This document shows positions 11,744 to 36,790 of a stretch of DNA of 43,343 bases, piece after piece. Both the position numbers and the translations under genes were made by a program. Origin of the DNA: an uncultured SAR86 cluster bacterium (GTDB taxonomy: Bacteria > Pseudomonadota > Gammaproteobacteria > Magnimaribacterales > D2472); NCBI GenBank assembly GCA_902602185.1, contig CACKPV010000006.1:1-43343 (forward strand), in the 5' to 3' direction. Every line of letters starts with the position of its first letter. Position 1 is the stretch's first letter. The notes under the pieces are model-generated. The model was not told the origin of the DNA. It did not search any database and saw only the letters and a program-made list of their open reading frames with translations.

Positions 11744-12191
11744 TATAAACTAAATAATCAGAACTTTCCGAAGACTCAATTTTAACTGTTTCAGGGTTTT
11801 TTTGATAAAACAATGATAGTTCATTCACAATCTCAAGTAGATTTTTAAGATCTAGCAACCTTAATGCAACAACTGAGTTATTATTATCTTGATAAAATTC
11901 AGGCTGTGTAAACTCTAAATCTGATAACAGCTCATTATTTTCAAAAAAAACTTTGATATCAGATTCTAATAATCCAATTTGTGCCGAGGACAATGATCTT
12001 GAAATGATTTTTGCCTTATTTAATACATAACTGTATTCACTACTTGAAGTTTGATATTGATTTTTTAAAACAGATATTTTTAAGGCAACCGTATTAACAC
12101 TCCAGAACACAATTAAAATTACTAGGAGAGATAAACTCACAAAAATTAGTTTTTTTTCACGATTTGAAAGATTGTTATAAAGATTTTTCAT
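11733..12191 (-). CDS. gspM: Type II secretion inner-membrane protein GspM
   Basis: This 152-residue protein has a short cytoplasmic start (NLSNREKKLIFV), one transmembrane helix (about 17-37) and a periplasmic ferredoxin-like region. SNREKKLI is the usual GspM opening (x-x-R-E-R-x-L). GspM binds GspL and helps assemble the platform under the pseudopilus. It is the last gene of the gsp operon, overlapping gspL by 4 bp; no gspN follows. Sequence similarity is weak, as is normal for GspM, and position gives most of the confidence. Confidence 0.85.
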   Translation of the reverse strand: MKNLYNNLSNREKKLIFVSLSLLVILIVFWSVNTVALKISVLKNQYQTSSSEYSYVLNKAKIISRSLSSAQIGLLESDIKVFFENNELLSDLEFTQPEFYQDNNNSVVALRLLDLKNLLEIVNELSLFYQKNPETVKIESSESSDYLVYISF

Positions 12192-14235: not shown

Positions 14236-14803
14236 TATTAGGGTTTACTATTAAATCAAAGCTATAGTCTTTTTTTTGAAACGTTATTTTGACCAGTTCT
14301 GGAATTTTTCTACTGGTGATAGCACCCAAAGGCCACTCATCAGACCACCGCCCTTGATTTAAAAAAGAAAAGGTCACTTGGTCAATATTTGAAAAAATTG
14401 TTGACTCTATCAATTCTGATTGAAAATAAGGATTTGCAGAAAAATATTGCTTTCTTACGAACGAGTCTGCCTCAAAAGCATATTCAATGCGGACTATTGA
14501 ATTTTCAATTAAGTCTATTTTTTTTAAATTAGTTTGTAAAATTAGTTTTTGCTCACTATTGCTCCCAATAAAACTGGAAATTCTATTGCCAAATGAATCT
14601 CTCATTGGAGCATTTACTGAAGCTAAGAAATCTCTTCTGAGGATATGTGATCCAAGATCGAATTCTCTAATCGTTTCAAGTTTGTTATCAGCTTGATTCT
14701 TTAATATGACTGACGATTGTAAAAAATTTGTAGAAACTACTGCAATAATCGAGAGTATTATTAGAGAAATTAGTACTTCAAGTAATGTGAATCCTCTATG
14801 CAT
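14213..14803 (-). CDS. gspJ: Type II secretion minor pseudopilin GspJ
   Basis: This 196-residue protein starts MHRG, then FTLLEVLISLIILSI: a very short prepilin leader with Gly at -1 and Glu at +5. The C-terminal beta-rich region has the WPLGAITSRKIPELVKITFQ strand usual near the end of GspJ. It forms the pseudopilus tip complex with GspI and GspK. It starts one base after the gspI stop. Confidence 0.9.
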   Translation of the reverse strand: MHRGFTLLEVLISLIILSIIAVVSTNFLQSSVILKNQADNKLETIREFDLGSHILRRDFLASVNAPMRDSFGNRISSFIGSNSEQKLILQTNLKKIDLIENSIVRIEYAFEADSFVRKQYFSANPYFQSELIESTIFSNIDQVTFSFLNQGRWSDEWPLGAITSRKIPELVKITFQKKDYSFDLIVNPNIEHVYQN

Positions 14804-14804
14804 T

Positions 14805-15167
14805 TTATTCCTTATTTAAAAAACCTCTGGTTTCATAAATTAATTGATTTGATTCAATTAAATAAATTTTCATTGAAAACTCCAAATATGATGTCATTGG
14901 GGTTTGAAAATATTCTTCTTCATATCTCCATGTTTTTCCAAAAAAAGTAATCTCATTTTTCCTCACATCAGGCTTCAAAGGTTTTTCAATGGTATTTAAT
15001 AAGGCAATTCTGTTGTTGGCAATTTCTCTTGCCAAAGTTCTATTCTCTAGCGAATACACGGAAAGAGTTGATGAGCTAATTGTTTGATAAACAGCAATAA
15101 CACTCACACTTAAAATAAAAAGTGCCACAGTAACTTCAAATAGACTAAATCCGCTTTTCTTATTCAT
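14805..15167 (-). CDS. gspI: Type II secretion minor pseudopilin GspI
   Basis: This 120-residue protein has the leader MNKKSG followed by FSLFEVTVALFILSVSVIA (Gly -1, Glu +5). The usual GspI downstream segment NRTLAREIANNRIALL is present (A-x-x-x-A-x-N). It nucleates the tip complex with GspJ and GspK. It overlaps gspH by 8 bp. Confidence 0.9.
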   Translation of the reverse strand: MNKKSGFSLFEVTVALFILSVSVIAVYQTISSSTLSVYSLENRTLAREIANNRIALLNTIEKPLKPDVRKNEITFFGKTWRYEEEYFQTPMTSYLEFSMKIYLIESNQLIYETRGFLNKE

Positions 15168-15651
15168 TTGCTCTAATTACCTTGCCATTTTTAGAAATTA
15201 TGATTTCAAGTTTTTTATCAATCGTTTCAAAATAAAGTTTTGCACCAGTATTCTCTCCAGATGGGTAAAAAATAATTACTGGTTCCAAACTCATTTCATT
15301 ATCTAAAAGTACTCGAGAACCCGATGAAGTTTCAACAGTTTTTGTGAAACTTTGTAATTGACCCCAATTAAAAGTATTTTTCTTGATTATTTTTTTATTA
15401 CCATCTCTTGAAATTATTGACCATTGTTGTTGAGAATCACTCAGTGACAATGCGATAATTTCTCCAGTTAATATTGATTCTTCTTTGATCAAATAAATTG
15501 ATTCTTCAATAGGACTTTTAAGGCTATTGTTACTAAATGATGAAATATTTAAAAAAATTATACTCGAAGCTAAACCTATTATTAAAAGAACAACAAGTAA
15601 CTCAACTAAGGTGAAAGCTGGTTTAGTTTTGCCAATTCCCAATATCTGCAT
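15160..15651 (-). CDS. gspH: Type II secretion minor pseudopilin GspH
   Basis: This 163-residue protein has the class III prepilin leader MQILGIGKTKPA followed by FTLVELLVVLLIIG. The start ATG at 15649-15651 is chosen because AGGTG lies 4 bases upstream and it leaves a short 12-residue leader. An upstream start at 15741 would overlap gspG by 119 bp. The residue before the cleavage site is Ala instead of the near-universal Gly; Glu +5 is kept. GspH links the tip complex to the major pseudopilin shaft. It overlaps gspG by 29 bp. Confidence 0.87.
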   Translation of the reverse strand: MQILGIGKTKPAFTLVELLVVLLIIGLASSIIFLNISSFSNNSLKSPIEESIYLIKEESILTGEIIALSLSDSQQQWSIISRDGNKKIIKKNTFNWGQLQSFTKTVETSSGSRVLLDNEMSLEPVIIFYPSGENTGAKLYFETIDKKLEIIISKNGKVIRANE

Positions 15652-16051
15652 TTTCACCTGAACCCCCTTCAATACCGTCGCTACCATAGGTAAAGAGATC
15701 ATAATTAGATTTGGTTCCAGGATAGAGGTACAAATATTCACGGCCCCAGGGATCTAAAGGAATGGATTTGATATAACCATCTACAGGATATAAAAAAGGT
15801 CTTTTTAGATTTTCTGGAGGACCAACTAGAGCAGTTAATCCTTGTTCAGTAGTTGGATAAGTTAATTCATTCAACCTGTAAACTTCCAGTGCTTTTTCAA
15901 GTTGAGTCATATCAGCTCGAATTTTTTCATAATTTGCTCTTTGGAGAAATGGATTTACATTTATTGCCACAACACTTGCTAAAATCCCAAGAATAACGAT
16001 AACTGCCATCAATTCAATTAAAGTAAATCCTGGTTTAAAATTATTTTTCAT
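15623..16051 (-). CDS. gspG: Type II secretion major pseudopilin GspG
   Basis: This 142-residue protein has the leader MKNNFKPG and mature FTLIELMAVIVILGILAS (Gly -1, Glu +5). It shows the GspG-specific LNELTYPTTEQGLTAL region, the DPWGREYLYLYPG motif, and a C-terminal calcium loop GSDGIEGGSGENADIGNW. This is the main building block of the periplasmic pseudopilus. The gene starts 4 bases after gspF ends and has a weak AGGT 7 bases before the ATG. Confidence 0.96.
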   Translation of the reverse strand: MKNNFKPGFTLIELMAVIVILGILASVVAINVNPFLQRANYEKIRADMTQLEKALEVYRLNELTYPTTEQGLTALVGPPENLKRPFLYPVDGYIKSIPLDPWGREYLYLYPGTKSNYDLFTYGSDGIEGGSGENADIGNWQN

Positions 16052-16055
16052 ATCA

Positions 16056-17252
16056 TTAACCTAATATTAGAGTATTCATTTGCATAATTGGGACAAGTAT
16101 TGCCATTACAATTAACAAAATAAATCCTCCCATAAATATGATTATAATTGGCTCGATAAGTGATAGAAAGGTAGATCTTGAAGTTTCAATATCATTTCTC
16201 AAAAAAATAGATGATTTATGAAACATTTCAGTAAGGTTTCCTGATCTATAGCCACTAGCAATTAATTGAGAAAAAATTTCAGGGAAAATCTTTTTTTGAG
16301 TCAACAATAAACCAAAATCTGATCCTTCTTTTATAGATTTTGTGATTTGCAATAGTTCAGATCTTAAATAGGCATTTGTTAGGACTTTACTGCATTCTTG
16401 AAGAGCATCATCTAAAACTAAACCTGAAGATGTTAACAAATGCATGGTACTACTAAATTTTTCTGTCTCAGATTTTAGAAGAAAAGTTCCTATAAAAGGT
16501 AATGACAAGAAAAATTTATGTAATCTAATCAGAGCATTTCGATTAGTTAAAAGTATGCTTTTAAAGAAAAAACTTCCAAAAATTATTAACAAAATAAATG
16601 TAATTATTATATATGGCAAAAAATTAGAAATAGTTAATAAAGCAGAAGTCAAAAATGGTAAATCAGCTCCAGATTTTACAAACTGTCCAACAACTTGTGG
16701 CATAACAAAAGTCAATAATGCAATGATAACGATGATTGAAAATGTAAATAAAATAAATGGATAAATTAATGCCGATCTAATTTTTTGTTTGATTGACATT
16801 GAATCCTCAAGGTAGTTTGCCAATGAATTAAACATTTTTGCTAGGTTACCAGAGGTATCTCCTGCTTTAATGAGAGAGATATAAGTATTGCTGAAGACTT
16901 TTGGAAACTTTTTCATTGCATCACCAAGTCTTTTACCTTGAACGATCTCTTCTTTAAGAGAATATAAAACTGACTTCATATTTTTGCTATTTAACTGATC
17001 TGCGGTTATTTTTAATGCATCATCAATTTGAGTTGAAGCTTCAAGTAAACTGGATATTTGTCTTGTAGCAACAACTAAATCTGAATTTTTAACTTTTATT
17101 TTTTCCTTTGTGGATTTTACTTCCCAAACCCTGATGGGTACTAAGTTTAATTTTTTAATTAATTTCCGTGCCAATCTTTCTGAATCAGCATTAATAAATC
17201 CAGTTGTTTCTTTCCCAGTTTCATCAAAGGCTTTATAACTAAATGATGGCAT
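16056..17252 (-). CDS. gspF: Type II secretion inner-membrane platform protein GspF
   Basis: This 398-residue protein has the N-terminal FSYKAFDETGKETTGFI motif and two repeated GspF cytoplasmic domains. Each repeat has the Q-x-I-x-x-L-x-x-L pattern (VVATRQISSLLEAS and TEKFSSTMHLLTSS) and is followed by hydrophobic helices; three transmembrane segments in total. The end, EPIIIIFMGGFILLIVMAILVPI (given in part), is the classic T2SF C-terminus. It overlaps gspE by 14 bp. Confidence 0.95.
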   Translation of the reverse strand: MPSFSYKAFDETGKETTGFINADSERLARKLIKKLNLVPIRVWEVKSTKEKIKVKNSDLVVATRQISSLLEASTQIDDALKITADQLNSKNMKSVLYSLKEEIVQGKRLGDAMKKFPKVFSNTYISLIKAGDTSGNLAKMFNSLANYLEDSMSIKQKIRSALIYPFILFTFSIIVIIALLTFVMPQVVGQFVKSGADLPFLTSALLTISNFLPYIIITFILLIIFGSFFFKSILLTNRNALIRLHKFFLSLPFIGTFLLKSETEKFSSTMHLLTSSGLVLDDALQECSKVLTNAYLRSELLQITKSIKEGSDFGLLLTQKKIFPEIFSQLIASGYRSGNLTEMFHKSSIFLRNDIETSRSTFLSLIEPIIIIFMGGFILLIVMAILVPIMQMNTLILG

Positions 17253-18732
17253 CTTCTTTGATATTATTTGATCTAATTAATTCTGAGCAAGAAGTAATTC
17301 CTTTTACTAACAGATCAGAGCAAGAAGAGTCTATGGAAGGATTTTTATCAAAAACATAAGAAGCTATTTCACCTTCTGATGATTGATCATGAATCATTTC
17401 TTTAATGGTTTGATCAATTTCAATACATTCAGCAATGGCAATCCTGCCTTTATAACCTGTATCATTGCATTCATTACAGCCTTTGTGAGTAAAAACTTTA
17501 GTGGATTTATCAATATTGAATAGTTTAGAAATTTTTTCATCAATAATTTCAGGTACTTTGCAACTATCACATAATCGCCTCACCAGTCTCTGGGAAATTA
17601 CAGTTTTTAAACTGGAGGAAATTAAGAAAGACTCAATGCCCATATCTCTCAAACGAGTGATAGCACCAATAGCACTATTTGTATGAACGGTAGATAGCAC
17701 TAAATGCCCAGTTAAACTTGCCTGAATTGCTATTTCAGCTGTTTCAGCATCTCTAATCTCCCCTACCATGACAACGTCAGGATCTTGTCTAAGCATTGCT
17801 CTGAGGCCTCTAGCAAAAGAGAATCCTGTTTTAGCATTCACTTGAGTTTGGCCTATGCCCTTAAGAGTATATTCAATAGGGTCCTCAACCGTTAGTATAT
17901 TCTGAGATGAATCACTTAAATATCTTAAACCCGCATAAAGTGTTGTTGTTTTACCTGAGCCGGTGGGACCTGTAACTAAAATGATTCCCTCTGTATCCTT
18001 GAGGGTTTTTTTATAAGGTTTTAGTATATATGTTGGTAATCCCAGATCATCGATATTAATTTGTGCAGATTGTTTATCTAATAGTCTTAAAACTATTCTT
18101 TCACCATACGAAGACGGCAAAGTTGAAACTCTAACATCGATACTTTTCTCTCCCAAAGACAACGTGATTCTACCATCCTGTGGAAGTCTTCTTTCCGAAA
18201 TATCTAATTTTGAAATAATTTTAAGTCTTGCAATAATTAAAGGGGCTAGTCTAAAGTCCTGGGTTATTACTTCTTTGAGAATCCCATCAATCCTGAACCT
18301 CACAGATAAAACATCCTCATAAGGCTCAAAATGAATATCTGAGGCTCTTGCTTTAATTGCTTGACTAATAATCCCATTAATTAGTTTAATAATTGGTGCG
18401 TCATCATTCCCGCTCAACAAATCTTCAGTTGCGCTAATAGACCCTGCAAAAGATTTGAGATCAAAATCATCTTTTAATTCTTCTGGTAACTCGTTATTTA
18501 CAGTTGATGCACTAAAACTTGATGTAATTAATTTATCAAATTCATCTTGTGAACATTGCTTTATAGAAAATGGGGACTGCAAAAAGCGACGTATCTCTTG
18601 AAAAAGTTCCGGACAAAAATCATTTGCATGATAGACAGTAATAACATCATTATTTTGCTCGGCAAAAACTTTATTCTCTTTAACAAAGTTATACGGCAGC
18701 AAATTAAGTGAATCTAAATTCTCTGATGGCAT
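17239..18732 (-). CDS. gspE: Type II secretion ATPase GspE
   Basis: This 497-residue cytoplasmic hexameric ATPase powers pseudopilus assembly. Visible are the N2E region with ASDIHFEPYED (about 130), Walker A GPTGSGKTTTL at about 255-265, the Asp box VEDPIEYTLKGIGQTQVN, Walker B DPDVVMVGEIRDAETA (about 317), and the His box TGHLVLSTVHTNSA. The zinc-binding tetracysteine C388-x2-C391...C419-x2-C422 is also present. Only a short N1E domain is present. It starts 2 bases after gspD. Confidence 0.97.
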   Translation of the reverse strand: MPSENLDSLNLLPYNFVKENKVFAEQNNDVITVYHANDFCPELFQEIRRFLQSPFSIKQCSQDEFDKLITSSFSASTVNNELPEELKDDFDLKSFAGSISATEDLLSGNDDAPIIKLINGIISQAIKARASDIHFEPYEDVLSVRFRIDGILKEVITQDFRLAPLIIARLKIISKLDISERRLPQDGRITLSLGEKSIDVRVSTLPSSYGERIVLRLLDKQSAQINIDDLGLPTYILKPYKKTLKDTEGIILVTGPTGSGKTTTLYAGLRYLSDSSQNILTVEDPIEYTLKGIGQTQVNAKTGFSFARGLRAMLRQDPDVVMVGEIRDAETAEIAIQASLTGHLVLSTVHTNSAIGAITRLRDMGIESFLISSSLKTVISQRLVRRLCDSCKVPEIIDEKISKLFNIDKSTKVFTHKGCNECNDTGYKGRIAIAECIEIDQTIKEMIHDQSSEGEIASYVFDKNPSIDSSCSDLLVKGITSCSELIRSNNIKEDAII

Positions 18733-18734
18733 TA

Positions 18735-20585
18735 TTAATCAGAAGTTAAATCAAGAATGGGTGACGACCCCTCTTTCAGAAGTTGCTCTGCTCTAATGAA
18801 ATTATATTTCTCTGATGATAATGAATTAACAGATTCTGAATCAACAAGTATTTTTGGACGAATAAAAACCATTAAATTTTTTTTAACTTTAGATTTTGAT
18901 GTGGATTGAAATAATTTACCAATTAATGGTATGGAACCTAGCAAAGGAACTTTTTGTAAATCTTCTTGAACATCTTCATCAATCAGTCCGCCAAGCACGA
19001 TTATCTGATTATTATCAACAAGTACTTTTGTTTCGATAGTTCTTTTATTGGTGATTAAATCCGAAGATCCTGTTAATGGACCAAGAACACTTGAAATTTC
19101 TTGCTTGATATCGAGTATTACAGAATTCCCTTCATTAATTTGAGGTTTTACGGACAATTTAATACCAACCTCCTCCCTTGCTGTAGTTCTAAAGGGATTT
19201 GCATTATTAGATCCAAGACTTTCACCTGTAGTTATTGGAATTTCTTGACCAATTAGTAAAGATGCATCTTCATTATCCATTGCAATAACAGAAGGAGTTG
19301 AAAGAATATTTGAATTTTGATCTGCTGCGATAGCATTTATGATTCCAATCATGCTGTCATCATCTTTTGAAAAATTTCCAATTCCAGCAACAATACCCTG
19401 CGAGTTCAGAAGAGAATTTGCAGCAATATTTGATAAAGTTGCATCGTCTCCTCCCTCAATTGCTGAACCAGTTAACCCAAGGAGGTCTGGTCCATTTATG
19501 TTACTAAATCTTGTAATGCCAATAGGCACTTCGCCATCCTCTGCACCAGCAAAGATTGTTTCTACTCCAAGACTTCTTGCAGCTGTTTCAGACAATTCTA
19601 CAATGATAGCCTCAACAAGAACTTGAGCTCTTCTAATATCAAGTTTAGAAATTAAATTTTTTATAATGGCTATATTTGATTCTTCACTGGAGACAATTAT
19701 TGCATTAGTTGGAGAATGATATGTAACTATAGGTTTCTCAGATTCATCTGAAACAAACCTAGATGCAACTGATGTCAAGATTCCAGCAATTTCCTCAGCT
19801 GCAGTATATTTTAGGTAAATAACTGCAATTGATCCTTCATTGACAGCATCTTGATCGAGCTGCGATAGAGTTTCTCTTATTATAGAAGTTGTTACTTTAT
19901 TGGCAGAAATGATTACGGAATTTGATGAAGTGAAAGGTATAGCAATAAAGTTGTTAATTGTAGGATTATTCTGAGCTTTTAATTTGTCTAATATTCTCAC
20001 AGCTTCAACCGATGATAAATTTTCTAAACTTATCACTGAAACTTTAGCTGTATTATCTTGATCGAGTGCTTTGGTTAATTCTTCAATTCTTGCCACATTA
20101 CTCTTTCTGTCCACAATAAGGATAGAATTGATCGAAGCTATGCTTGATAAGTTTGCCTGTCTTCCAGTAAGTGGCTTGAGAGCAGGTAATATCTCTATGG
20201 ATGATCTGTTATTTAGTTGAATAACTTTGGTAACAAAATCTCCTTCATATTCTGTTTTATATGAAGTATCCCGAGTAGACTCATTCTCAGGGACAATTCG
20301 AATAAAGTTATCACTGCTTATCGCACTAAAACCATTGACTTGTATCGTCCTTAAGTAAACTTCCCAAACTTCATCAGAAGTTAGAGAGGAGTTAGAGAAG
20401 ATAGTTACCTTACCTTTAACACGCGGATCAAGGATGATTGTTTTTTTTGAAAAGTTGGCAATATCTTGTGTGACTCTTCTTATATCAACTTCCTCATAAT
20501 TAAGAATAAAAGTTTCTTGCGATAGTAAAATAGTTGAATGAGCAATAATTACAACAACAAAAAATTTTTTTAGATATTTATTCAT
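18735..20585 (-). CDS. gspD: Type II secretion outer-membrane secretin GspD
   Basis: This 616-residue protein has a signal peptide (KFFVVVIIAHSTILLSQ), an N0 domain beginning FILNYEEVDIRRVTQDIAN, then KH-like N1-N3 repeats. The secretin core contains VLVEAIIVELSE, the gate region, VGIKLSVKPQINEG, and the closing VPLLGSIPLIGKLFQ. It forms the outer-membrane channel. It overlaps gspC by 8 bp. No pilotin gene was recognised nearby. Confidence 0.97.
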   Translation of the reverse strand: MNKYLKKFFVVVIIAHSTILLSQETFILNYEEVDIRRVTQDIANFSKKTIILDPRVKGKVTIFSNSSLTSDEVWEVYLRTIQVNGFSAISSDNFIRIVPENESTRDTSYKTEYEGDFVTKVIQLNNRSSIEILPALKPLTGRQANLSSIASINSILIVDRKSNVARIEELTKALDQDNTAKVSVISLENLSSVEAVRILDKLKAQNNPTINNFIAIPFTSSNSVIISANKVTTSIIRETLSQLDQDAVNEGSIAVIYLKYTAAEEIAGILTSVASRFVSDESEKPIVTYHSPTNAIIVSSEESNIAIIKNLISKLDIRRAQVLVEAIIVELSETAARSLGVETIFAGAEDGEVPIGITRFSNINGPDLLGLTGSAIEGGDDATLSNIAANSLLNSQGIVAGIGNFSKDDDSMIGIINAIAADQNSNILSTPSVIAMDNEDASLLIGQEIPITTGESLGSNNANPFRTTAREEVGIKLSVKPQINEGNSVILDIKQEISSVLGPLTGSSDLITNKRTIETKVLVDNNQIIVLGGLIDEDVQEDLQKVPLLGSIPLIGKLFQSTSKSKVKKNLMVFIRPKILVDSESVNSLSSEKYNFIRAEQLLKEGSSPILDLTSD

Positions 20586-20979
20586 TATTATTAAACTTAT
20601 TTTTTAATATAATTTTTTTGTTATTGTACTCAAAAATTATCTCTTCATTAGAAACACTTACAAGTTTATATTTATTTTCAAGAAAATCATTAAGTTGGAC
20701 ATCAAATTGCTTTCCACCTTTAGAAACAAATACTGAAGAATTAATAACTCCAAGTTTTACACCAATAAGATCATAATCAAAATTTTGAGATGAATTACTT
20801 ACCTGAGTTTTTTGCGGAACAAATTCTGTAAAATTAATTTGTTTATCCACTGAAAAGGTTTCAATTTTATTATCAACAGAAGAGAAGAATAAAATATTTT
20901 TTATTAATAATCCTATCACTAATGCTAACAACGATCCAAATACTAAAAACTTAATGTTTATTTTTTTTATAAGAAACAT
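20578..20979 (-). CDS. gspC: Type II secretion protein GspC, short form
   Basis: This 133-residue protein has one N-terminal transmembrane helix (about 10-30) and a periplasmic homology region: DYDLIGVKLGVINSSVF, then GKQFDVQLNDFLENKYKLVSVSNEEIIFEYNNKK (given in part). The HR domain links the inner-membrane platform to GspD N0. The PDZ or coiled-coil domain of well-studied GspC proteins (about 270-300 residues) is absent. First gene of the gsp operon, 54 bp after phoR; a TACAAT lies 6 bases before the ATG but has no convincing -35. Confidence 0.85.
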   Translation of the reverse strand: MFLIKKINIKFLVFGSLLALVIGLLIKNILFFSSVDNKIETFSVDKQINFTEFVPQKTQVSNSSQNFDYDLIGVKLGVINSSVFVSKGGKQFDVQLNDFLENKYKLVSVSNEEIIFEYNNKKIILKNKFNNNE

Positions 20980-29146: not shown

Positions 29147-29232
29147 TTGACAAACTATTAGTAATTACTGCATATGCAATCCCTACAGTTACTTTTTTAA
29201 TTATTTGTTATTTCATCACAAAGAAAAAGTAA
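29143..29232 (+). CDS. 29-residue single-helix membrane microprotein
   Basis: The ATG at 29143 overlaps the ggt stop (ATGA) and is preceded by a perfect AGGAG Shine-Dalgarno at 29131-29135, seven bases upstream. This is stronger than most sites in the window. The product is MIDKLLVITAYAIP, then a hydrophobic TVTFLIICYFI and a basic TKKK tail: one membrane helix, C-terminus probably cytoplasmic. It lies between gamma-glutamyltransferase and the prepilin peptidase. I do not recognise a family. Confidence 0.65.
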   Translation: MIDKLLVITAYAIPTVTFLIICYFITKKK

Positions 29233-29234
29233 TT

Positions 29235-29972
29235 TTGATTTATCTATATTGTCTTATCTTTTTTTTTGGAGCTATTCTAGGAAGTTTTGCTCACAGTTAC
29301 CTTTATAGATTTGATGAAAACCATACAAATGCAGAGGTCACAATCTTTTACCCTAGATCATTTTGTCCACAATGTAAAAATCAATTAAAAAGTTGGATGA
29401 TAATTCCAATCATTAGTTATTTCTTAACTTTTGGAAAATGCTCATTTTGTAAAAAAGATATTAAATTCAATTATCTAAGCTACGAGATTTTGTTCGGGCT
29501 TATAGCCATTTTTGTATATATAACTTCTGATGCTGAATACATTGCCTTTATAAATCTCTGTTTTGTGGTACTAATTTTTTTGCAAATTAGCTTAGATCTA
29601 AAATATTTAGTTTTATCAACCTCACTATCTTTAATAATTATCGTGCTTGGATGTTTTAAAAATTTTAATTCGTTGATGATGATAACAGAGTCTCTGATTG
29701 GAGCAGGAATTGGATTTTTATTTCTATTTCTTATCAATTATATATTTAATGTCATCACAAAAAAAAATGGTATTGGCTCAGGAGATTTTTATCTCTTGGC
29801 AGGCTTGGGATCTTTTTACGGAATCTATCTTCTCCCTTTTGTTGTCCTAATTGGAGCTATAGTTACTCTAGCTATGCATTTGCTTGGCATTACGAAAGGC
29901 AAGGTGCTTCCATTAGGTGCTGGTCTTGGTATAGGATCATATATTATTTTAGTAACACAAAATTATTTTTAA
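29235..29972 (+). CDS. gspO: Prepilin peptidase / N-methyltransferase GspO (PilD-like)
   Basis: This inner-membrane aspartyl protease cleaves and N-methylates prepilin-like proteins, here most likely GspG, H, I, J and K. About eight hydrophobic segments are seen. The N-terminal GAILGSFAHSYLYR matches the family opening (GSFLNVVIYR). The zinc-type tetracysteine is CPQC...CSFC, and the second catalytic Asp is in GSGDFYLLAGLG (G-x-G-D); the first is probably in SLDLKYL. There is no ATG start. TTG at 29235 follows the microprotein stop; TTG at 29205 would add 10 residues. It is separated from the gsp operon by about 8 kb. Confidence 0.9.
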   Translation: MIYLYCLIFFFGAILGSFAHSYLYRFDENHTNAEVTIFYPRSFCPQCKNQLKSWMIIPIISYFLTFGKCSFCKKDIKFNYLSYEILFGLIAIFVYITSDAEYIAFINLCFVVLIFLQISLDLKYLVLSTSLSLIIIVLGCFKNFNSLMMITESLIGAGIGFLFLFLINYIFNVITKKNGIGSGDFYLLAGLGSFYGIYLLPFVVLIGAIVTLAMHLLGITKGKVLPLGAGLGIGSYIILVTQNYF

Positions 29973-30141: not shown

Positions 30142-30217
30142 GCGGGTGTGGTGTTAATGGCTAGCACAATAGCCTTCCAAGCTATTGGTACGGGTTCGAA
30201 TCCCGTCACCCGCTCCA
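30142..30217 (+). tRNA. tRNA-Gly (anticodon TCC)
   Basis: This is a full cloverleaf of 76 bases with an encoded CCA end. Acceptor stem GCGGGTG pairs with CACCCGC, with discriminator T then CCA. The anticodon arm is ATAGC-CTTCCAA-GCTAT with anticodon TCC, and the T arm is ACGGG-TTCGAAT-CCCGT. It reads GGA/GGG glycine codons. The convergent minus-strand gene stops one base after it (30219). Confidence 0.97.
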
Positions 30218-30218
30218 C

Positions 30219-30977
30219 TTAATTGGAGGAAATCCTGATACGCTTACCTAAGTGACCGTATTCATCACAGTCAAACATCATATTTGCTAAATTAGGAAAC
30301 TCAGATTGATTCCATTTTTCCCTTGATGCATCTTTATCACTAAAATTTGACCATAAATCTAGCCAAACAAAATCCACACCAGAATCGAATTGTGGTTCTA
30401 ACATGATGTACCAATGTCCATCGCTCCAAGTAACACTATTAATACCTTCTTGATAGGAGTTAAGATCATCTAGCCCATATCCATCATTATAGTCACAGAA
30501 GAAAAATGAATTGACAAAAGTATCCTCGGTATTTTCAACTGCTGGAGAGCTGCCCAATGAGGTTTTGAAAAGATAAACGTCATCTGTGTTGTAAGTCATT
30601 ACTCCATCAATAGTCTCTAACCACTGAGGTTCATAATTTTGAGACCAATCTTCCCAAGCAGCATTCCTATCCTCTAAAGATGCCCATCTTAGTACCCAAA
30701 TAAAATCGACTTGATCTGATTCTTCAAGGGGTTTGAGTATATTTGCACCTACCATTTTATAACCAGCATCATCAATAATATTATTCCACTCATCAACAAG
30801 CATATTTAACTTATCTTCAGAAAAGTTTGGGCCTTCCTTATGCCAAACGTATTCAACTAAAGTTTGATTTAAAAGGGGGGAATCTACAAAATTATCACTA
30901 TCAGTTTCTGAACTACAAGATATTAAAAAAATTGCTAAAAAGCAGCTTGCAAAATAAAAATATACATTCTTTATCAT
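30219..30977 (-). CDS. Tandem paralog 1: exported lipoprotein with two repeats of an unfamiliar domain
   Basis: This 252-residue protein starts at ATG 30977 (GGGAGA about 6 bases upstream, 2 bases after the previous stop), not at the longer frame's first codon. The signal ends in a lipobox (FLISCSS), predicting a lipoprotein. Two repeats follow. The second has FFFCDYNDGYGLDDLNSY, later DFVWLDLWSN and EKWNQSE. The first has EYVWHKEGPNFSEDKL, DFIWVLRWAS and AAWEDWSQN with PQWL. The pattern (strand, loop, helix, D-F-x-W-x-x-x-W strand, W-rich helix) is compatible with a ferredoxin-like dimeric barrel, which is inference. No family is recognised. It is last in a four-gene minus-strand run. Confidence 0.85.
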   Translation of the reverse strand: MIKNVYFYFASCFLAIFLISCSSETDSDNFVDSPLLNQTLVEYVWHKEGPNFSEDKLNMLVDEWNNIIDDAGYKMVGANILKPLEESDQVDFIWVLRWASLEDRNAAWEDWSQNYEPQWLETIDGVMTYNTDDVYLFKTSLGSSPAVENTEDTFVNSFFFCDYNDGYGLDDLNSYQEGINSVTWSDGHWYIMLEPQFDSGVDFVWLDLWSNFSDKDASREKWNQSEFPNLANMMFDCDEYGHLGKRIRISSN

Positions 30978-30979
30978 AA

Positions 30980-31756
30980 TTATCTCCCTGTTGAAAAAAT
31001 CCATTCAGATGCCCAAGTCTTTGGTGGTGAACATCCTTCAATTAATGATTGTCGTTTTTCTGGTAATTTTGTTTTAGTGATAAAATCACTCCACTCTCGA
31101 TATGATGAGATCATTTCAGATCTTTTTTCAGCGTTATACCAATATGTCATATTCACAAAATCAAAATTTATGTCTTTATCAAAACCTCTGTAAGGAGTAA
31201 ATAAATTTATTCCAAAACCTTCTCTGCCAAAATCTCGGTTTGCTCTTTCATATTCAACATAAAATGTTTTTAAATCAGACATCGAAGCATTTTCAGCAAA
31301 ATTACAATTCCTCAAATCTACAAAATTTATTCTGTCATAATCATCTTGATTAATTCTTATACGCATGACAGCATGATTTCTCATTGAAACACTTGCAGAA
31401 CAAGTTCCTGCTTGAGATACATCAATGTCTTGTTCTGCGAGCCACTGGGGGTACTCATTTAAATATGCACCCCATTCTCTATATTGCTCCTGTCCATCAG
31501 GCCAATTTCCACTGAGAACATAATCATATTCTTGTTCACCAGCCCAAATTGGTGTCATAACATACCGTGTATATTTCAGACCTTTCTCTTCAAGAAATTT
31601 CTGATACTGCTTTGATTGCTCAACTACATCATTGTAGCCTTTGCCCTCATTATATTTACAAAACATAAATTCACTTCTGACAACATATTGCTCAGAAGTC
31701 TCTGCAACGCTTATTCCTGTAAGGGAAAATATTAAAAAAATTGAAAGAAATCTCAT
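30980..31756 (-). CDS. Tandem paralog 2: exported protein with two repeats of an unfamiliar domain
   Basis: This 258-residue protein has a signal peptide MRFLSIFLIFSLTGISVA (no lipobox). Repeat 1: EFMFCKYNEGKGYNDVVEQS, then PIWAGEQEYDYVLSGNW, REWGAYLNEYPQWL. Repeat 2: LRNCNFAENASMSDLKTFY, then NFDFVNMTYW and YREWSDFI. The C-x-(Y/F)-N-x-G-x4-D-(L/V) motif is shared with its neighbours. It lies 3 bases after paralog 3, with AGAG upstream of ATTATG. The paired cysteines could form disulfides in the periplasm. Function unknown. Confidence 0.85.
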   Translation of the reverse strand: MRFLSIFLIFSLTGISVAETSEQYVVRSEFMFCKYNEGKGYNDVVEQSKQYQKFLEEKGLKYTRYVMTPIWAGEQEYDYVLSGNWPDGQEQYREWGAYLNEYPQWLAEQDIDVSQAGTCSASVSMRNHAVMRIRINQDDYDRINFVDLRNCNFAENASMSDLKTFYVEYERANRDFGREGFGINLFTPYRGFDKDINFDFVNMTYWYNAEKRSEMISSYREWSDFITKTKLPEKRQSLIEGCSPPKTWASEWIFSTGR

Positions 31757-31759
31757 AAT

Positions 31760-32518
31760 TTACTCTGCTACTCTCATGCCATAAACAATATATGAAACTG
31801 CATTTCTACATTCCCAACCTTGTAAATTTTGTGCAGCTTCTGATTCTGATAATTTATCCCAAAATAAATCTGCATTTACACCCATCTCTGAAACAGAAGA
31901 TGTATACATTAATCTATGGAAATCTGCATCTGAATTAGTTTGCGTTGTTGGGACGATTAATTTTCTACCAACGGTATCACCATTCTCTTGTGCAAACTTT
32001 GCAAAATCGACATAATCATCGTAAACCATTCTTAAATTAACATCTTCTTCAAGAAAACATTCAGAATAAACTGCATACATTACTGATGATGCTTCTAAGG
32101 CACGAGGTTCAGAAATCACCCATTGCCATGTATCGACAACTGCAGTATTAGTTATTGGAATATCAGCAAATAATTCAACAGCATCTTCATCAGTTACCCA
32201 ATTTTCTAATGCTCTAAATTGTGAAGTGGGGTCAGGCCAAGTGTTTATCCACATAAAATCATGACTAGATAAATCATTGCTATATTGAGGCCTCGCAATG
32301 CCAACAGTCATTGAATCCCAAATATCACCTTGATCATCTGACCAGTCAGCAAAGTCATCGTACCAATCCATTAAATCTGATAAATCTTTTCCACGATTAA
32401 ATTTACCAAAAAAATATTCAGCCTTATTGCTTTCAGGTTCATATTTATATGAATTTTCAGATTCTTGTCCAATCAAGTTAAAGTTAAATATAAAAACAAA
32501 TAATAAAAGTATTCTCAT
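31760..32518 (-). CDS. Tandem paralog 3: exported protein with two repeats of an unfamiliar domain
   Basis: This 252-residue protein starts at ATG 32518, where GGAG lies 6 bases upstream; a longer frame from 32542 puts eight extra residues before the signal peptide (ILLLFVFIFNFNLIGQ). Repeat 1: YFFGKFNRGKDLSDLMDWYDDF, given here as FFGKFNRGKDLSDLMDW, then HDFMWINTWPD. Repeat 2: YSECFLEEDVNLRMVYDDY, then ADFHRLMYTSS. Repeat 1 has Gly where the other copies have Cys. It is next to paralog 2 (3 bp) and 64 bp after paralog 4. Confidence 0.84.
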   Translation of the reverse strand: MRILLLFVFIFNFNLIGQESENSYKYEPESNKAEYFFGKFNRGKDLSDLMDWYDDFADWSDDQGDIWDSMTVGIARPQYSNDLSSHDFMWINTWPDPTSQFRALENWVTDEDAVELFADIPITNTAVVDTWQWVISEPRALEASSVMYAVYSECFLEEDVNLRMVYDDYVDFAKFAQENGDTVGRKLIVPTTQTNSDADFHRLMYTSSVSEMGVNADLFWDKLSESEAAQNLQGWECRNAVSYIVYGMRVAE

Positions 32519-32582
32519 AATTTCTCCGTTAATTAAATACATTTTTCATACTATCACAAATGGTCTGCTTGGTTGTGACGTT

Positions 32583-33311
32583 CTAGTAAATTTTAAAAGA
32601 TTTATAATTACTAGAGGAGAAGCATTGAACTTGCTCTTCAAAGATTTGTTTGATTTCTTGAGAGGCTGAATCTTTGATCCATTTTTGAAAAAAATTGAAT
32701 TGTTCTTCTTTAGTTTGAAAGTAATTTTGCCACAAGAATCTCCCGGGAGTTTTCTGATTTTTCATGAAATCAACTTTGTAAGCTAAATCATAATTACTCA
32801 AAGATCTGATAAAAAAATCAAACTCAACAGAGAAAGTGCCATAATTAAAGCCTTCATTAAATTTGCAATCAATTACCTCTGAAATGAAAATGTCATCAGA
32901 AAGGTTTTGATAAAATAATGTTGTTACTTCATAAGAATTGGTATCTTCATTACATGTAAAAATATCACTTCCCTCTTCAATAAATTTTAAAGAAGAAGAT
33001 AAAATTTTATTTTTTCTTGACTGCTCAATTAGAATAAAATTAGATACAGTTAAAGAATTGTTATCAATAATATAAATATATAATTCATTATTATTTATAA
33101 ATTCTCGGTTACTCTGAAATATAGGAATAAATTGCTCTAGATCATTAAGGTTTTTTTTACTATTTATAGAGCAATCATGGAATCTTGAAAATAAGTTGAA
33201 GTCAGGATTGATTAATGATGACAGATTCTCATCGGAAGAAATTTTGTCATTTGAACACGATAAAAAAATAAAAGATGTTAAGAAAATGACAAAAGATAAA
33301 TTATGTTTCAT
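32583..33311 (-). CDS. Tandem paralog 4: divergent lipoprotein of the same family
   Basis: This 242-residue protein has a clear lipobox (IFLSCSND). Repeat 2 carries the family motif VIDCKFNEGFNYGTFSVEF followed by RFLWQNYFQTKEEQ and FFQKWIKD. Repeat 1 is degenerate (FHDCSINSKKNLNDLEQF). It is the least conserved of the four and the most AT-rich. It heads the minus-strand run; only 14 bp separate its ATG from the divergent PhoD-like gene, so promoters must overlap the opposing coding sequences. Function unknown. Confidence 0.78.
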   Translation of the reverse strand: MKHNLSFVIFLTSFIFLSCSNDKISSDENLSSLINPDFNLFSRFHDCSINSKKNLNDLEQFIPIFQSNREFINNNELYIYIIDNNSLTVSNFILIEQSRKNKILSSSLKFIEEGSDIFTCNEDTNSYEVTTLFYQNLSDDIFISEVIDCKFNEGFNYGTFSVEFDFFIRSLSNYDLAYKVDFMKNQKTPGRFLWQNYFQTKEEQFNFFQKWIKDSASQEIKQIFEEQVQCFSSSNYKSFKIY

Positions 33312-33325
33312 TGTACAATTAGAGC

Positions 33326-34282
33326 ATGCGATTACTTACAAACTTTTTTATAGTATGCCTTTTTCACCAACAACTTTATAGTGATGAAATTATTTTGGGT
33401 TTGGGTTCATGTCTTGATCAAGATTATCCGCAACCTATTTGGCAATCAATTAAAAAAGAAGATCTAAATTACTTTGTCTTTTTAGGTGACAATGTTTATG
33501 GAGATAGCCCTGATGGAAAGCTTGATAAATTAATATTGGCATATAAAAAGCAAAAGGAGCTGCTCCCAACTTGGTTGAAACCTGAAATGATTTTTTCTAT
33601 TTGGGATGATCATGATTTTGGATTAAATGATGGTGGTGGAAGTTTTGTAAATAAATCTGAATCTGAAAAAATATATCTGGATTTTTGGGAAGTATCAAAT
33701 ACTGATCCAAGAAGAAATAGAGACGGAATATATTACTCAAAGAAATTAAAATTATCTGATAAAACTATTAAATTAATTTTCTTAGATACAAGATTTTTTA
33801 GATCAGATTTAAAGAAAAAAAATGGGGTTTATCAAGCAAATAATGAGAACAATTCCACAATTCTAGGAGAAGATCAATGGGTATGGCTGAAGAAACAATT
33901 TCAACCATCAATAGATGCCTACATAATTTTTAGCTCTATTCAAATTCTTGCTACTGAACATAGATTTGAAAAATGGAGCAATTTCCCAACTGAAAGATCA
34001 AAATTATTAGAGTTTTTGAAAAAACAAGAGGTGCCCAAGATGCTTGTTTCAGGAGATAGACACAGGGGTGGAATTTATAAATACAATAATGGTATTATAG
34101 AGATAACAGCATCTTCACTTAACAAACCAGGTTCCGGATTTTCGGAGTTTGACTCCCTTTTAATTGGTAATACTCATAATGAAGAAAATTACGGCATTCT
34201 TAGGATAGGCAAAAATACAATTAAGGCTGAATTAAAAAATATTGAAGGTGTTATCTTGGAGAAGGCAGAATTAATCTTTTAA
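33326..34282 (+). CDS. PhoD-like metallophosphatase/phosphodiesterase, exported
   Basis: This 318-residue protein has a short signal (LLTNFFIVCLFHQQLYS). PhoD-like motifs: GLGSCLDQDYPQPIW, FVFLGDNVYGD (metal-binding Asp/Asn), IWDDHDFGLNDGG, IFLDTRFFRSD, and LVSGDRHRGGIY. The family hydrolyses phosphomono- or diesters in the periplasm or outside the cell. The protein is shorter than Bacillus PhoD and lacks its N-terminal beta domain, matching compact marine forms. It fits the phosphorus-scavenging theme. It is convergent with the next gene (17 bp). Confidence 0.9.
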   Translation: MRLLTNFFIVCLFHQQLYSDEIILGLGSCLDQDYPQPIWQSIKKEDLNYFVFLGDNVYGDSPDGKLDKLILAYKKQKELLPTWLKPEMIFSIWDDHDFGLNDGGGSFVNKSESEKIYLDFWEVSNTDPRRNRDGIYYSKKLKLSDKTIKLIFLDTRFFRSDLKKKNGVYQANNENNSTILGEDQWVWLKKQFQPSIDAYIIFSSIQILATEHRFEKWSNFPTERSKLLEFLKKQEVPKMLVSGDRHRGGIYKYNNGIIEITASSLNKPGSGFSEFDSLLIGNTHNEENYGILRIGKNTIKAELKNIEGVILEKAELIF

Positions 34283-34798: not shown

Positions 34799-35638
34799 CT
34801 ATAAATCGCTCAATAAAAAGTTAGCGGCGTGAGTAGTCATCAATGAATTTTGGTGTCCAACACCCTCCACCACCTCTAATTTCCAACGAAAAGGTACTTC
34901 AAGTTTTTCTGCAACTGCAATATTATCCCTAAAATAAGCTAAACCTCTTTCATATCTATGTCTTCCTTGGATTTTTGCTTTACTATTATTTCTTAAATTG
35001 TCGGCATTTGGATTGACATCTTTGTCACCCAAAAGAACAGCTGCACGCAATGAAAGAAACCATTCCAATCTTTCCTGCGTTACAGGAACATCCTTGATAC
35101 CATAAGGATAATTCACATCATTAAGAAAGGTGTACCAACCAGCATTTGCCATCACTACCTTTTCAGCTCTGGCATCAACTCCAAATAATAAATATCTATG
35201 TACAAACTGAGATCCACCTGAATGACCATACATTCTGTATGTATTATCATTTAAATCAAATTTAGACTTAAAAAAGTTAAAAATTATTGATATTGAATCA
35301 CCAATGTAATTATCTGGATTTAGCAAATAACCTTCTGTTTTAGAATCAATAACAAGTGTATTAAATGATGGAAAAGAATCCTCTGAAAATTTTGGGGCAA
35401 TTACAATTATATTTTTATCAAAAGTTAGAGACTTCCAATGGTTTAAGTATCTTTCAGCAGTTCTTGAAGCACCATGAATTACAAAAAGTACCTTTGTGTC
35501 TTGATTTACTTCTTCTGGTAAATAGTAAAACACTTCGATATCGGGTTTATTCCAAGCACTAAAAGTAAAGTTTTCCTCGGAGTAAATAGTTTGTGTAAAA
35601 AAAATAAAAACTATTAAAAAATTTAGTTTAATATTCAT
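34799..35638 (-). CDS. Exported alpha/beta hydrolase (depolymerase/esterase-like)
   Basis: This 279-residue protein starts at ATG 35638, which gives a proper signal peptide (MNIKLNFLIVFIFFTQTIYS); earlier in-frame ATGs add a non-signal extension. Fold motifs: VLFVIHGASRTAERYL (oxyanion HG), the nucleophile elbow YGHSGGSQFVHRY, the acid region LLGDKDVNP, and the catalytic His in VEGVGHQNS. It resembles polyester depolymerase/feruloyl-esterase-like hydrolases, but the substrate is unknown. It is divergent from the CinA-fusion gene with 39 bp between starts. Confidence 0.85.
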   Translation of the reverse strand: MNIKLNFLIVFIFFTQTIYSEENFTFSAWNKPDIEVFYYLPEEVNQDTKVLFVIHGASRTAERYLNHWKSLTFDKNIIVIAPKFSEDSFPSFNTLVIDSKTEGYLLNPDNYIGDSISIIFNFFKSKFDLNDNTYRMYGHSGGSQFVHRYLLFGVDARAEKVVMANAGWYTFLNDVNYPYGIKDVPVTQERLEWFLSLRAAVLLGDKDVNPNADNLRNNSKAKIQGRHRYERGLAYFRDNIAVAEKLEVPFRWKLEVVEGVGHQNSLMTTHAANFLLSDL

Positions 35639-35677
35639 ATATGCATAATAAATCATAATTATTACAAATTTAGGATA

Positions 35678-36790
35678 ATGAGCAAAGATCATCGAACTTT
35701 AATAAAAAAAATTCATCAATCTGATTATAAATTTTGTATTTCTTTAAGTGGTGGTGGCACTAACCTTGCCTCTTCATTATTATCGGTTCCAGGTGCTAGT
35801 AATTCAATTCTTGAGGTTTTTGTTCCCTACTCAAGAGAATCTATACAAATTTTTTTAAATAAAATCCCAGATCATTATTGCTCACTTGAAACTACACTTA
35901 ACATGGCATCAATGTCATTTAAAAAAACACAAGAGCTCACGAAAGAGAATCATGATAAAGATGTAAAAATTTTCGGTATTGGAATAACAGCTAGTTTAAA
36001 AACAATTGATAAAAAGAAAGGTGGGCATAGATTTTATATCGTGTCTCATAATGCTGAACAAACAACTTTAATAAGCTGTAACTTACAAAATAACATGCGT
36101 TCAAGGATAGAGGAGGAGGAACTTCTTTCAGAAATGATTCTAAAATTAATTGCTAATAATTGTAATATTAAAACTGATTTTCCCGAGATTCCTGAGGGTT
36201 TCAAAATTCACACAACTGAAGCAGAACCATTGTGGTCAGATCTTCTAGCAAACAAACTTGATTTTGTATCTAACACTAAAAATAAGCCTGAGTTAATTTT
36301 TCCAGGTTCATTTAATCCTCTGCATGAAGGTCATAAAAAAATGAAAACTATTGCTGAAGAAAAAACTGGAATGGATTTATTTTATGAGATTTGTATTAAA
36401 AATGTTGACAAGCCTCCCCTCACCTTTTATCAAATTAAAAAAACTATTTCACAATTTGATTCCAGCCAGTGGGTCTTGACCACAAAAGGTCGTTTTTTTG
36501 AAAAAGCAAAACTCTTTCCTAATTCCATCTTCGTAATTGGTTTTGACACTCTCAATAGAATGCTTGATGAAAAATACTATGCTTCAAAAAAAGATATGTT
36601 GGAGAAATTAGATGTATTTAATGACTTTAATAATTCCTTCTTAGTGTTTGGTAGAAAAGATCTTAATGTTTTTAGATCAATGAAGGACATCAGCATACCT
36701 AGTCATATCAAAAAAAGATTTAGTGGATTTGGAGAAAAAGAATTCAGAGATGATGTTTCATCATCAGCATTAAGAAAAAAATATCTTTGA
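35678..36790 (+). CDS. CinA-like domain fused to a nucleotidyltransferase (NMNAT-like) domain
   Basis: This is a 370-residue two-domain protein. Residues about 15-170 resemble the CinA C-terminal (pyridine-nucleotide amidase) domain: SLSGGGTNLASSLLSVPGAS with VFVPYS, then FGIGITASL. Residues about 205-370 are a cytidylyltransferase-like Rossmann domain: LIFPGSFNPLHEGHKKM with His216 and His219 of the H-x-G-H motif, and a C-terminal SSSALRKKY equivalent to I-S-S-T-x-x-R. The pair suggests deamidation of NMN and adenylylation in NAD recycling, which is inference. The CinA ESCTGG active-site stretch is altered to LSGGGTN, so amidase activity is uncertain. It is convergent with bL33. Confidence 0.85.
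   Translation: MSKDHRTLIKKIHQSDYKFCISLSGGGTNLASSLLSVPGASNSILEVFVPYSRESIQIFLNKIPDHYCSLETTLNMASMSFKKTQELTKENHDKDVKIFGIGITASLKTIDKKKGGHRFYIVSHNAEQTTLISCNLQNNMRSRIEEEELLSEMILKLIANNCNIKTDFPEIPEGFKIHTTEAEPLWSDLLANKLDFVSNTKNKPELIFPGSFNPLHEGHKKMKTIAEEKTGMDLFYEICIKNVDKPPLTFYQIKKTISQFDSSQWVLTTKGRFFEKAKLFPNSIFVIGFDTLNRMLDEKYYASKKDMLEKLDVFNDFNNSFLVFGRKDLNVFRSMKDISIPSHIKKRFSGFGEKEFRDDVSSSALRKKYL

What the first reader, a model, noticed from the sequence alone, without database searches (positions are those of the whole stretch)
30219..33311. Four tandem paralogous exported proteins built from eight copies of an unfamiliar domain
Seen directly: four consecutive minus-strand genes of 242-258 residues each have an export signal (two with lipoboxes) and two repeats of about 100 residues. 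The repeats start with a strand and the motif C-x-(Y/F)-N-x-G-x4-D-(L/V), then a helix, a P-x-n-D-F-x-W-x-x-x-W strand and a W-rich helix. Copies include FFCDYNDGYGLDDL, MFCKYNEGKGYNDV, FFGKFNRGKDLSDL and VIDCKFNEGFNYG. I know no family with this signature. The strand-helix-strand pattern with conserved Trp suggests a ferredoxin-like dimeric barrel (NIPSNAP/EthD-like), making each protein a pseudo-dimer. Expansion by tandem duplication with export suggests a surface or periplasmic ligand-binding or enzymatic set.
Basis: partly seen in the sequence, partly recalled or inferred. Interest (0 to 1): 0.75.

Follow-up and report, generated by a model that had tools for sequence, protein, structure and literature searches.

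The report
Exported double-barrel proteins of SAR86 bacteria
Four neighbouring genes in an ocean bacterium encode predicted exported, two-repeat barrel-shaped proteins of a family absent from the protein-family libraries searched; most sampled relatives carry it, often beside predicted exported hydrolases, and its function is still unknown.

Summary
Four minus-strand genes (30219-33311) encode proteins with export signals that belong to one family. A repeat profile built without the window finds 7 of the 8 repeats; the eighth (first repeat of the outermost gene) is degenerate and rests on the structure model. AlphaFold2 gives beta-alpha-beta-beta-alpha-beta twice (pLDDT 93 and 87). The best PDB matches are two-repeat alpha/beta barrels: 2PGC (a marine metagenome protein of unknown function) and sulfur oxygenase reductase. 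The four are not a fresh tandem expansion: they fall in four old clades, two shared with Halieaceae. The family occurs in 187 of 199 sampled genomes of the SAR86 order (1-8 matches each) but in 5 of 369 of the class, four of those from the same order. No Pfam or NCBIfam model fits. Each repeat can carry one cysteine pair, kept or missing together (no half-pair in 82 sequences). No histidine column exceeds 21%, which speaks against haem or iron enzymes. Recurrent neighbours are a PhoD-like phosphodiesterase, or a run esterase - this family - FAD monooxygenase - malate synthase. My best guess: periplasmic binding or processing of lipid-derived molecules. Fold well supported, function inferred.

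The parts
30219..30977 (-). P1: lipoprotein-like (lipobox by eye), two repeats (residues about 41-137 and 154-240); its clade also holds Halieaceae sequences; first-repeat cysteine pair absent, second present
30980..31756 (-). P2: signal peptide by eye, two repeats, both cysteine pairs (C33/C119, C151/C242); AlphaFold2 model pLDDT 93.1, pTM 0.85
31760..32518 (-). P3: signal peptide by eye, two repeats, first-repeat cysteine pair absent; the subfamily most often met in the neighbourhood survey (63 of 86 family genes)
32583..33311 (-). P4: lipoprotein-like (lipobox by eye), two repeats, the first degenerate in sequence; AlphaFold2 model pLDDT 87.1, pTM 0.78
33326..34282 (+). PhoD-like phosphodiesterase gene, head to head with P4; recurrent neighbour
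34799..35692 (-). alpha/beta-hydrolase-like gene (NCBIfam PHB depolymerase model at E 0.0012, far below its cut-off; no Pfam match), 2-6 genes from the family genes in 20 of 101 loci

Best explanation
The four genes belong to an uncatalogued family of exported proteins. Each protein is one chain folded as two ferredoxin-like (beta-alpha-beta-beta-alpha-beta) repeats that pack as a pseudo-dimeric alpha/beta barrel, with a disulfide between the first and last strand of a repeat where the cysteine pair is present. I think the barrel lumen binds small, mostly hydrophobic molecules in the periplasm. The four subfamilies would take different ligands and either tailor them without a bound metal or haem (as small barrel monooxygenases and isomerases do) or hold and hand them on. 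The molecules would be products of the exported hydrolases encoded next door (PhoD-like phosphodiesterase, carboxylesterase, peptidases), that is, the periplasmic breakdown of membrane lipids and sterols that feeds SAR86 beta-oxidation. Shown here: one family, two repeats, predicted fold, cysteine coupling, distribution, gene neighbourhood. Read by eye: export signals. Inferred: disulfide formation, lumen ligand, lipid link, catalysis or transport.
For: One family. Repeats. Fold: P2 pLDDT 93.1, pTM 0.85 and P4 87.1, 0.78. VIA-align for P2: 2pgc Z 14.7 (rmsd 3.4, 198 aligned), sulfur oxygenase reductases 10.6-12.1, putative monooxygenases about 11. For P4: sulfur oxygenase reductases 13.9-14.9, 2pgc 14.3 (rmsd 3.3, 191 aligned). 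Cysteines: in 82 full-length sequences C33/C119 are both present in 60 and both absent in 22, never one alone; C151/C242 are present in 82 of 82; on a tree the first pair changes three times, both cysteines each time. C33 and C119 lie in strands 24-35 and 117-133 of the model, the neighbouring first and fourth strands of this fold (recalled topology). Distribution. Single-repeat homologues of 124-175 aa exist, fitting an ancestor that could have formed true dimers. Neighbourhood: in a survey of 60 further loci, family gene - FAD monooxygenase - malate synthase G lie on one strand in 25 of 60, with an Abhydrolase_2 esterase upstream in 23 of those (identities by Pfam on one representative locus, L169, the others by BLAST cluster or by a profile made here). 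PhoD-like genes are present in 28 of 101 loci and directly adjacent in 25 (25 and 22 without three second copies), head to head with P4 in the window's family and tail to tail with P3 in six loci of another SAR86 family. The PhoD family includes a secreted phospholipase D (PMC4223295, abstract and passages). SAR86 is reported to invest in beta-oxidation, to have the glyoxylate shunt and putative phospholipases, and is proposed to degrade complex lipids in the periplasm (PMC11582366: abstract, passages, section 14).
Against: No ligand, activity or expression data. Foldseek TM-scores are modest (0.40-0.49 by query length in the 50 rows shown, rmsd 6-9). Neighbours differ between lineages; some are peptidases (M64, S9, M2) rather than lipid enzymes, and in another gammaproteobacterial family the neighbour is a class V aminotransferase-like gene (my reading of the sequence; no family search was run) with an ECF-sigma-like gene, so the lipid link is not uniform. 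Much of the conserved gene order is shared ancestry, not repeated selection. MAPEG, which drew my eye in several loci, is adjacent in only 1 of the 60 survey loci. The cysteine coupling rests on 3 independent events and the sign test is not significant (p 0.25). No coordinates were available, so pocket residues were not mapped.
Confidence: 0.5

Rival explanations
1. The proteins are enzymes of the haem- or iron-dependent branch of the fold (chlorite dismutase, coproheme decarboxylase, DyP peroxidase, sulfur oxygenase reductase).
For: Foldseek ranks coproheme decarboxylases first (best E 5e-8); sulfur oxygenase reductases have Z 10.6-12.1 with P2 and 13.9-14.9 with P4.
Against: No alignment column of P2 residues 20-258 has histidine in more than 21% of 82 sequences; the known members use conserved histidine ligands (recalled). 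Sequence identity to the listed structures is 4-13%.
Confidence: 0.07
2. Accessory, chaperone-like or structural subunits of neighbouring exported hydrolases, or type II secretion substrates that act as scaffolds, with no small ligand.
For: Linkage to exported hydrolases; a GspD secretin and a prepilin peptidase lie in the same window.
Against: The neighbouring hydrolases belong to unrelated families and change between lineages while the barrel family stays; other loci of single- and double-repeat forms show none of these neighbours in the stretch fetched.
Confidence: 0.2
3. Peptide or amino-compound handling rather than lipids: the family serves exported proteolysis.
For: An M64 peptidase stands upstream in the common run, an S9 prolyl oligopeptidase near the genes of another lineage, an M2 peptidase in a third; gamma-glutamyltranspeptidase is two genes away from P1 in the window.
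Against: The closest partners by gap and strand in the commonest setting are an esterase, an FAD monooxygenase and malate synthase; PhoD-like genes are not peptidases.
Confidence: 0.2

Closest known systems
2PGC, JCSG structure of a marine metagenome (GOS) protein
   Same: Best PDB fold match of P2 (Z 14.7) and tied with the best for P4 (Z 14.3); about 200 residues, aligned over nearly the whole chain; marine origin
   Different: No sequence match from the family profile A1 up to E 10; a second exported SAR86 family (c16) is the weak sequence link (E 0.23). Function of 2PGC unknown to me; PMC2557142 names it as a structure from a novel GOS family (one passage seen)
Sulfur oxygenase reductase (2cb2 and others)
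   Same: Barrel fold over most of the chain, Z 10.6-12.1 with P2 and 13.9-14.9 with P4
   Different: About 307-310 residues, 4-8% identity; no conserved histidine here
Putative monooxygenases 3f44, 3mcs, PenE 9kdp; HmoB 4fvc
   Same: ABM-like barrels (recalled), Z 8.7-13.4
   Different: No PDB chain matched by sequence better than E 8.9; the family here carries export signals and cysteine pairs
c16 family, a second exported two-repeat-like family of SAR86 (for example L038 5626-6333)
   Same: Signal peptide by eye, about 235 aa, same gene clusters (within two genes in 13 of 60 survey loci); profile comparison probability 93.5 (signal peptide columns included)
   Different: Lacks the C..NEG motif; not collected by the iterative profiles, although three of its genes were in that set

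Membership tests
Dimeric alpha/beta barrel superfamily (ferredoxin-like, pseudo-dimeric members) | beta-alpha-beta-beta-alpha-beta repeat, twice per chain | tested here: met
   AlphaFold2 models of P2 and P4; P1 and P3 not modelled
Dimeric alpha/beta barrel superfamily (ferredoxin-like, pseudo-dimeric members) | Whole-chain structural match to solved pseudo-dimeric barrels | tested here: met
   P2 to 2pgc Z 14.7 over 198 residues; P4 to sulfur oxygenase reductase Z 14.9 over 203
NIPSNAP, EthD, ABM, Dabb, DUF1330 (Pfam models) | Sequence match to the family's HMM | tested here: not met
   36 members of A1 scanned against Pfam at E 0.1: ten families, each in 1 member (best E 0.015), none of these; DUF1428 in 1 of 36 at 0.017
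Chlorite dismutase / coproheme decarboxylase | Conserved proximal histidine (recalled) | tested here: not met
   No histidine column above 21% of 82 sequences
Sulfur oxygenase reductase | Conserved 2-His-1-carboxylate iron site (recalled) | tested here: not met
   Same column count
2PGC family | Sequence homology to 2PGC | tested here: inconclusive
   Profile A1 has no match to 2pgc up to E 10; fold matches; indirect weak link through c16
Dimeric alpha/beta barrel superfamily (ferredoxin-like, pseudo-dimeric members) | Ligand or active site in the barrel lumen | not testable with these tools
   No model coordinates and no assay available

The most novel reading that the evidence does not exclude
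SAR86, one of the most abundant bacterial groups of the surface ocean, keeps an order-wide periplasmic set of disulfide-stapled pseudo-dimeric barrels (this family plus the c16, c27, c63, c14 and single-repeat look-alikes) that process lipid- or sterol-derived molecules outside the cytoplasm, an exported counterpart of the cytoplasmic small-barrel oxygenases and isomerases.
Probability: 0.25. Interest if true: 0.75.

Novelty: new variant of a known kind. Interest (0 to 1): 0.5.

Why it matters
SAR86 genomes are small (0.7-1.8 Mb in the sampled assemblies), yet 187 of 199 sampled keep 1-8 matches to this unnamed family with export signals. Its function would tell what SAR86 does with organic matter outside its cytoplasm, and a cultured isolate now exists (PMC11582366, abstract). 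The family also offers a possible case of single-repeat proteins becoming fused pseudo-dimers, and a compact set of genes ready for structure work and ligand screening.

Tried and rejected
Phage origin: no PHROG match of note for the four proteins (one at E 0.27); a viral-contig scan with one relative found no relative; the viral fold library gave three matches under 0.001, the best an antibiotic-biosynthesis-monooxygenase-like protein at 1.7e-05. Haem or iron enzyme: judged unlikely for lack of conserved histidine. Solved relatives by sequence: none for P2 and only one chance-level chain, E 8.9, for profile A1. The other exported SAR86 families c63, c14 and c27 found no solved relative up to E 10, and c14 and c27 are not joined by profile comparison (probability 34.1 and 1.2), so I treat them as neighbours with a similar look, not as proven members. 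MAPEG as a general partner: adjacent in loci I had seen first (L033, L034/L078, L079, L042 and, outside SAR86, L137, L139), but in only 1 of 60 survey loci (L160), so dropped as a general rule; the order-wide MAPEG list was cut before the relevant subfamily and could not serve as a test.

Literature: a search for SAR86 with 'dimeric alpha-beta barrel' and one for antibiotic-biosynthesis-monooxygenase-like proteins with signal peptide and periplasm found no paper. The listings (1 paper; 10 listed of 121; 8 listed of 9) show nothing on this family by title. In PMC11582366, which I did not read whole (abstract, section 14 and passages for six terms seen), there was no mention of it. The library holds open-licence papers only.

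Limits of the counts: the 60 rows and 82 are distinct sequences of at least 220 and 225 aa from fetched loci; shorter and duplicate rows were dropped. The 5 of 369 and 2 of 398 include the window's own genome. Searches searched genomes drawn evenly from larger groups, many incomplete. Matches include two pieces of one ORF in some cases (5, 9 and 4 matches are 4, 8 and 4 ORFs). The 101 loci include second copies of the same place (L080/L035, L081/L036, L082/L037, L086/L052) and one locus (L073) without a family gene. The 60 survey loci were chosen by me from the best-scoring places, so weak subfamilies are under-sampled (63 of 86 family genes there are P3-like).
Full report
Setting. Its relatives G039, G004 and G002 share contig lengths and positions with records titled SAR86 cluster bacterium (QOPD01000007, CACLBJ010000005, CACNRI010000003), so I call the host SAR86 (order Magnimaribacterales in PMC11582366, abstract seen).

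Observation. Four minus-strand ORFs lie at 30219-33311. Gaps are 2 bases (P2-P1), 3 (P3-P2) and 64 (P4-P3), so they look like one operon; P4 and the PhoD-like gene start 14 bases apart on opposite strands. P1 and P4 carry lipoboxes, P2 and P3 ordinary signal peptides (by eye). Pairwise BLAST among the four is weak (best 4e-06, P2-P3), but iterative profiles from each of the four converge on the same 42 of 501 ORFs, and a repeat HMM built without the window finds 7 of 8 repeats at 5.3e-12 or better. The first repeat of P4 is degenerate in sequence (0.028, against 0.064 for the best of 2000 shuffles) but present in its model. First-half against second-half profile comparison gives probability 99.0 against 1.0-1.4 for reversed controls.

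Fold. The P2 model (36-sequence alignment) has pLDDT 93.1 and pTM 0.85, with the order strand-helix-strand-strand-helix-strand twice; P4 (43 sequences) has 87.1 and 0.78. Foldseek's top PDB hits for P2 are coproheme decarboxylases and an anthrone-oxidase-like protein (best E 5e-8, but TM-scores of only 0.40-0.49). VIA-align puts 2pgc first for P2 (Z 14.7, rmsd 3.4, 198 residues), then sulfur oxygenase reductases (10.6-12.1) and putative monooxygenases (about 11). For P4, sulfur oxygenase reductases (13.9-14.9) and 2pgc (14.3) are tied. By my recall these are two-repeat alpha/beta barrels. A shared fold shows no function.

Cysteine staples. Across 82 full-length sequences, the second-repeat pair (C151, C242 in P2) is present in all; the first-repeat pair (C33, C119) is present in 60, absent in 22, and never half present (42/18/0 in an earlier set of 60). 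On a tree built without these two columns the pair changes three times, both cysteines together each time; with three events the sign test cannot be significant (p 0.25). I read this as one disulfide per repeat, expected for exported proteins. No histidine column exceeds 21%, so haem and iron enzymes of this fold are unlikely.

Who has it. With profile A1 at E 1e-5, 187 of 199 sampled genomes of the order have the family, 1-8 matches each; 38 of 40 of those at least 90% complete. With profile A2, 5 of 369 genomes of the class match, four of them from the window's order, and 2 of 398 of the phylum sample, one being the window's own genome. The fifth class hit leads to an unnamed gammaproteobacterial family in which 36 of 61 genomes match. 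Three genomes whose records are titled Halieaceae or Luminiphilus have 5, 9 and 4 matches (4, 8 and 4 ORFs) at E 0.001. The window's own genome has six clear copies and one weak hit, the latter a member of the c16 family. Single-repeat homologues exist in SAR86 (L048), Halieaceae (L120, L121, L123) and the other family. Of ten short one-repeat proteins scanned against Pfam, three had a hit at E 0.021-0.035, below cut-off, and seven none up to 0.1.

History. In a tree of 82 proteins (quick method, SH-aLRT only), P1, P2, P3 and P4 fall in four separate starred clades; the P1 and P2 clades include Halieaceae. In loci of the window's genus (L035-L037, L083-L085) the order PhoD-P4-P3-P2 is kept; other SAR86 loci have P4-P3, or P4 with P1. 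So the array gathers old subfamilies; it is not a recent expansion.

Neighbourhood. Three recurring settings were seen. (a) A PhoD-like gene next to P4 (head to head) in the window's family, and next to P3 (tail to tail) in six loci of another SAR86 family; 28 of 101 loci hold such a gene, 25 directly adjacent. (b) A one-strand run, esterase - family gene(s) - FAD monooxygenase - malate synthase G, the last three in 25 of 60 survey loci, 23 with the esterase upstream; a DUF1330 gene often follows, and an M64-like peptidase gene and the exported c16 family often stand before the esterase (c16 within two genes in 13 of 60). (c) In a further SAR86 family, TspO-like, SnoaL-like and cupin-like genes, a PETase-like hydrolase and an M2 peptidase (the TspO-like label is my recognition, and the cupin match is below Pfam's cut-off). 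In the other gammaproteobacterial family a class V aminotransferase-like gene stands on the same strand within 240 bases of the nearest family gene in 10 of 24 loci fetched, many with short flanks (label by my reading). The common thread in SAR86 is exported hydrolysis, plus malate synthase, a central step of growth on fatty acids, in the commonest setting.

Mechanism. Putting this together I favour periplasmic barrels that bind or tailor hydrophobic products of lipid breakdown. PMC11582366 reports that the order invests in beta-oxidation and has the glyoxylate shunt and putative phospholipases (section 14 read), and proposes periplasmic degradation of complex lipids (passages). The PhoD family includes a secreted phospholipase D (PMC4223295, abstract and passages). 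My rough odds: fold 0.95, export 0.9, ligand in the lumen 0.6, lipid-derived ligand 0.35, catalysis rather than carriage 0.5. The window also holds two AMP-binding (acyl-CoA-synthetase-like) genes nearby, which fits but proves nothing.

Verdict. A real family of a known fold without a model in Pfam or NCBIfam, unusual in carrying export signals and paired cysteines, in being fused into pseudo-dimers, and in being nearly universal in the sampled genomes of an abundant marine order. Function open but testable.

Noticed in passing
L038 5626-6333, L044 4022-4714, L043 4901-5635, L073 3335-4072, L077 8426-9136, L074 5526-6233, L148 7646-8353: A second exported family (c16, about 235 aa) clusters with this one; its profile's best PDB match is 2pgc (E 0.23) and two histidine columns are invariant in the six sequences aligned. 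L148 was put here by eye.
   Followed up: partly
L043 5645-6358, L045 2953-3639, L078 261-701, L074 7337-7765: Further exported-looking proteins of 140-237 aa (c63, c27, c14, FAM142); the two scanned have no Pfam match above cut-off (for L074; for L078).
   Followed up: partly
window 11733-20979: A run of minus-strand genes with a GspD secretin (18735-20585) that looks like a type II secretion cluster; a prepilin peptidase gene lies at 29205-29972, next to the family genes.
   Followed up: no
window 33311-33326: Divergent starts of P4 and the PhoD-like gene only 14 bases apart, leaving no room for ordinary promoters between them unless a start lies further in.
   Followed up: no
window 30142-30217: ARAGORN reports a tRNA-Gly (tcc) on the + strand, one base from the end of P1.
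   Followed up: no
L140, L141, L144, L145, L146, L149, L150, L151, L071, L124: In another gammaproteobacterial family the family gene lies next to a class V aminotransferase-like gene, and in seven of these ten loci an ECF-sigma-like gene is also present (labels by my reading).
   Followed up: partly
L079 (CAJXMP010000086.1): A contig filed under an uncultured Lewinella MAG carries SAR86-like gene order and sequences and is probably misbinned.
   Followed up: no
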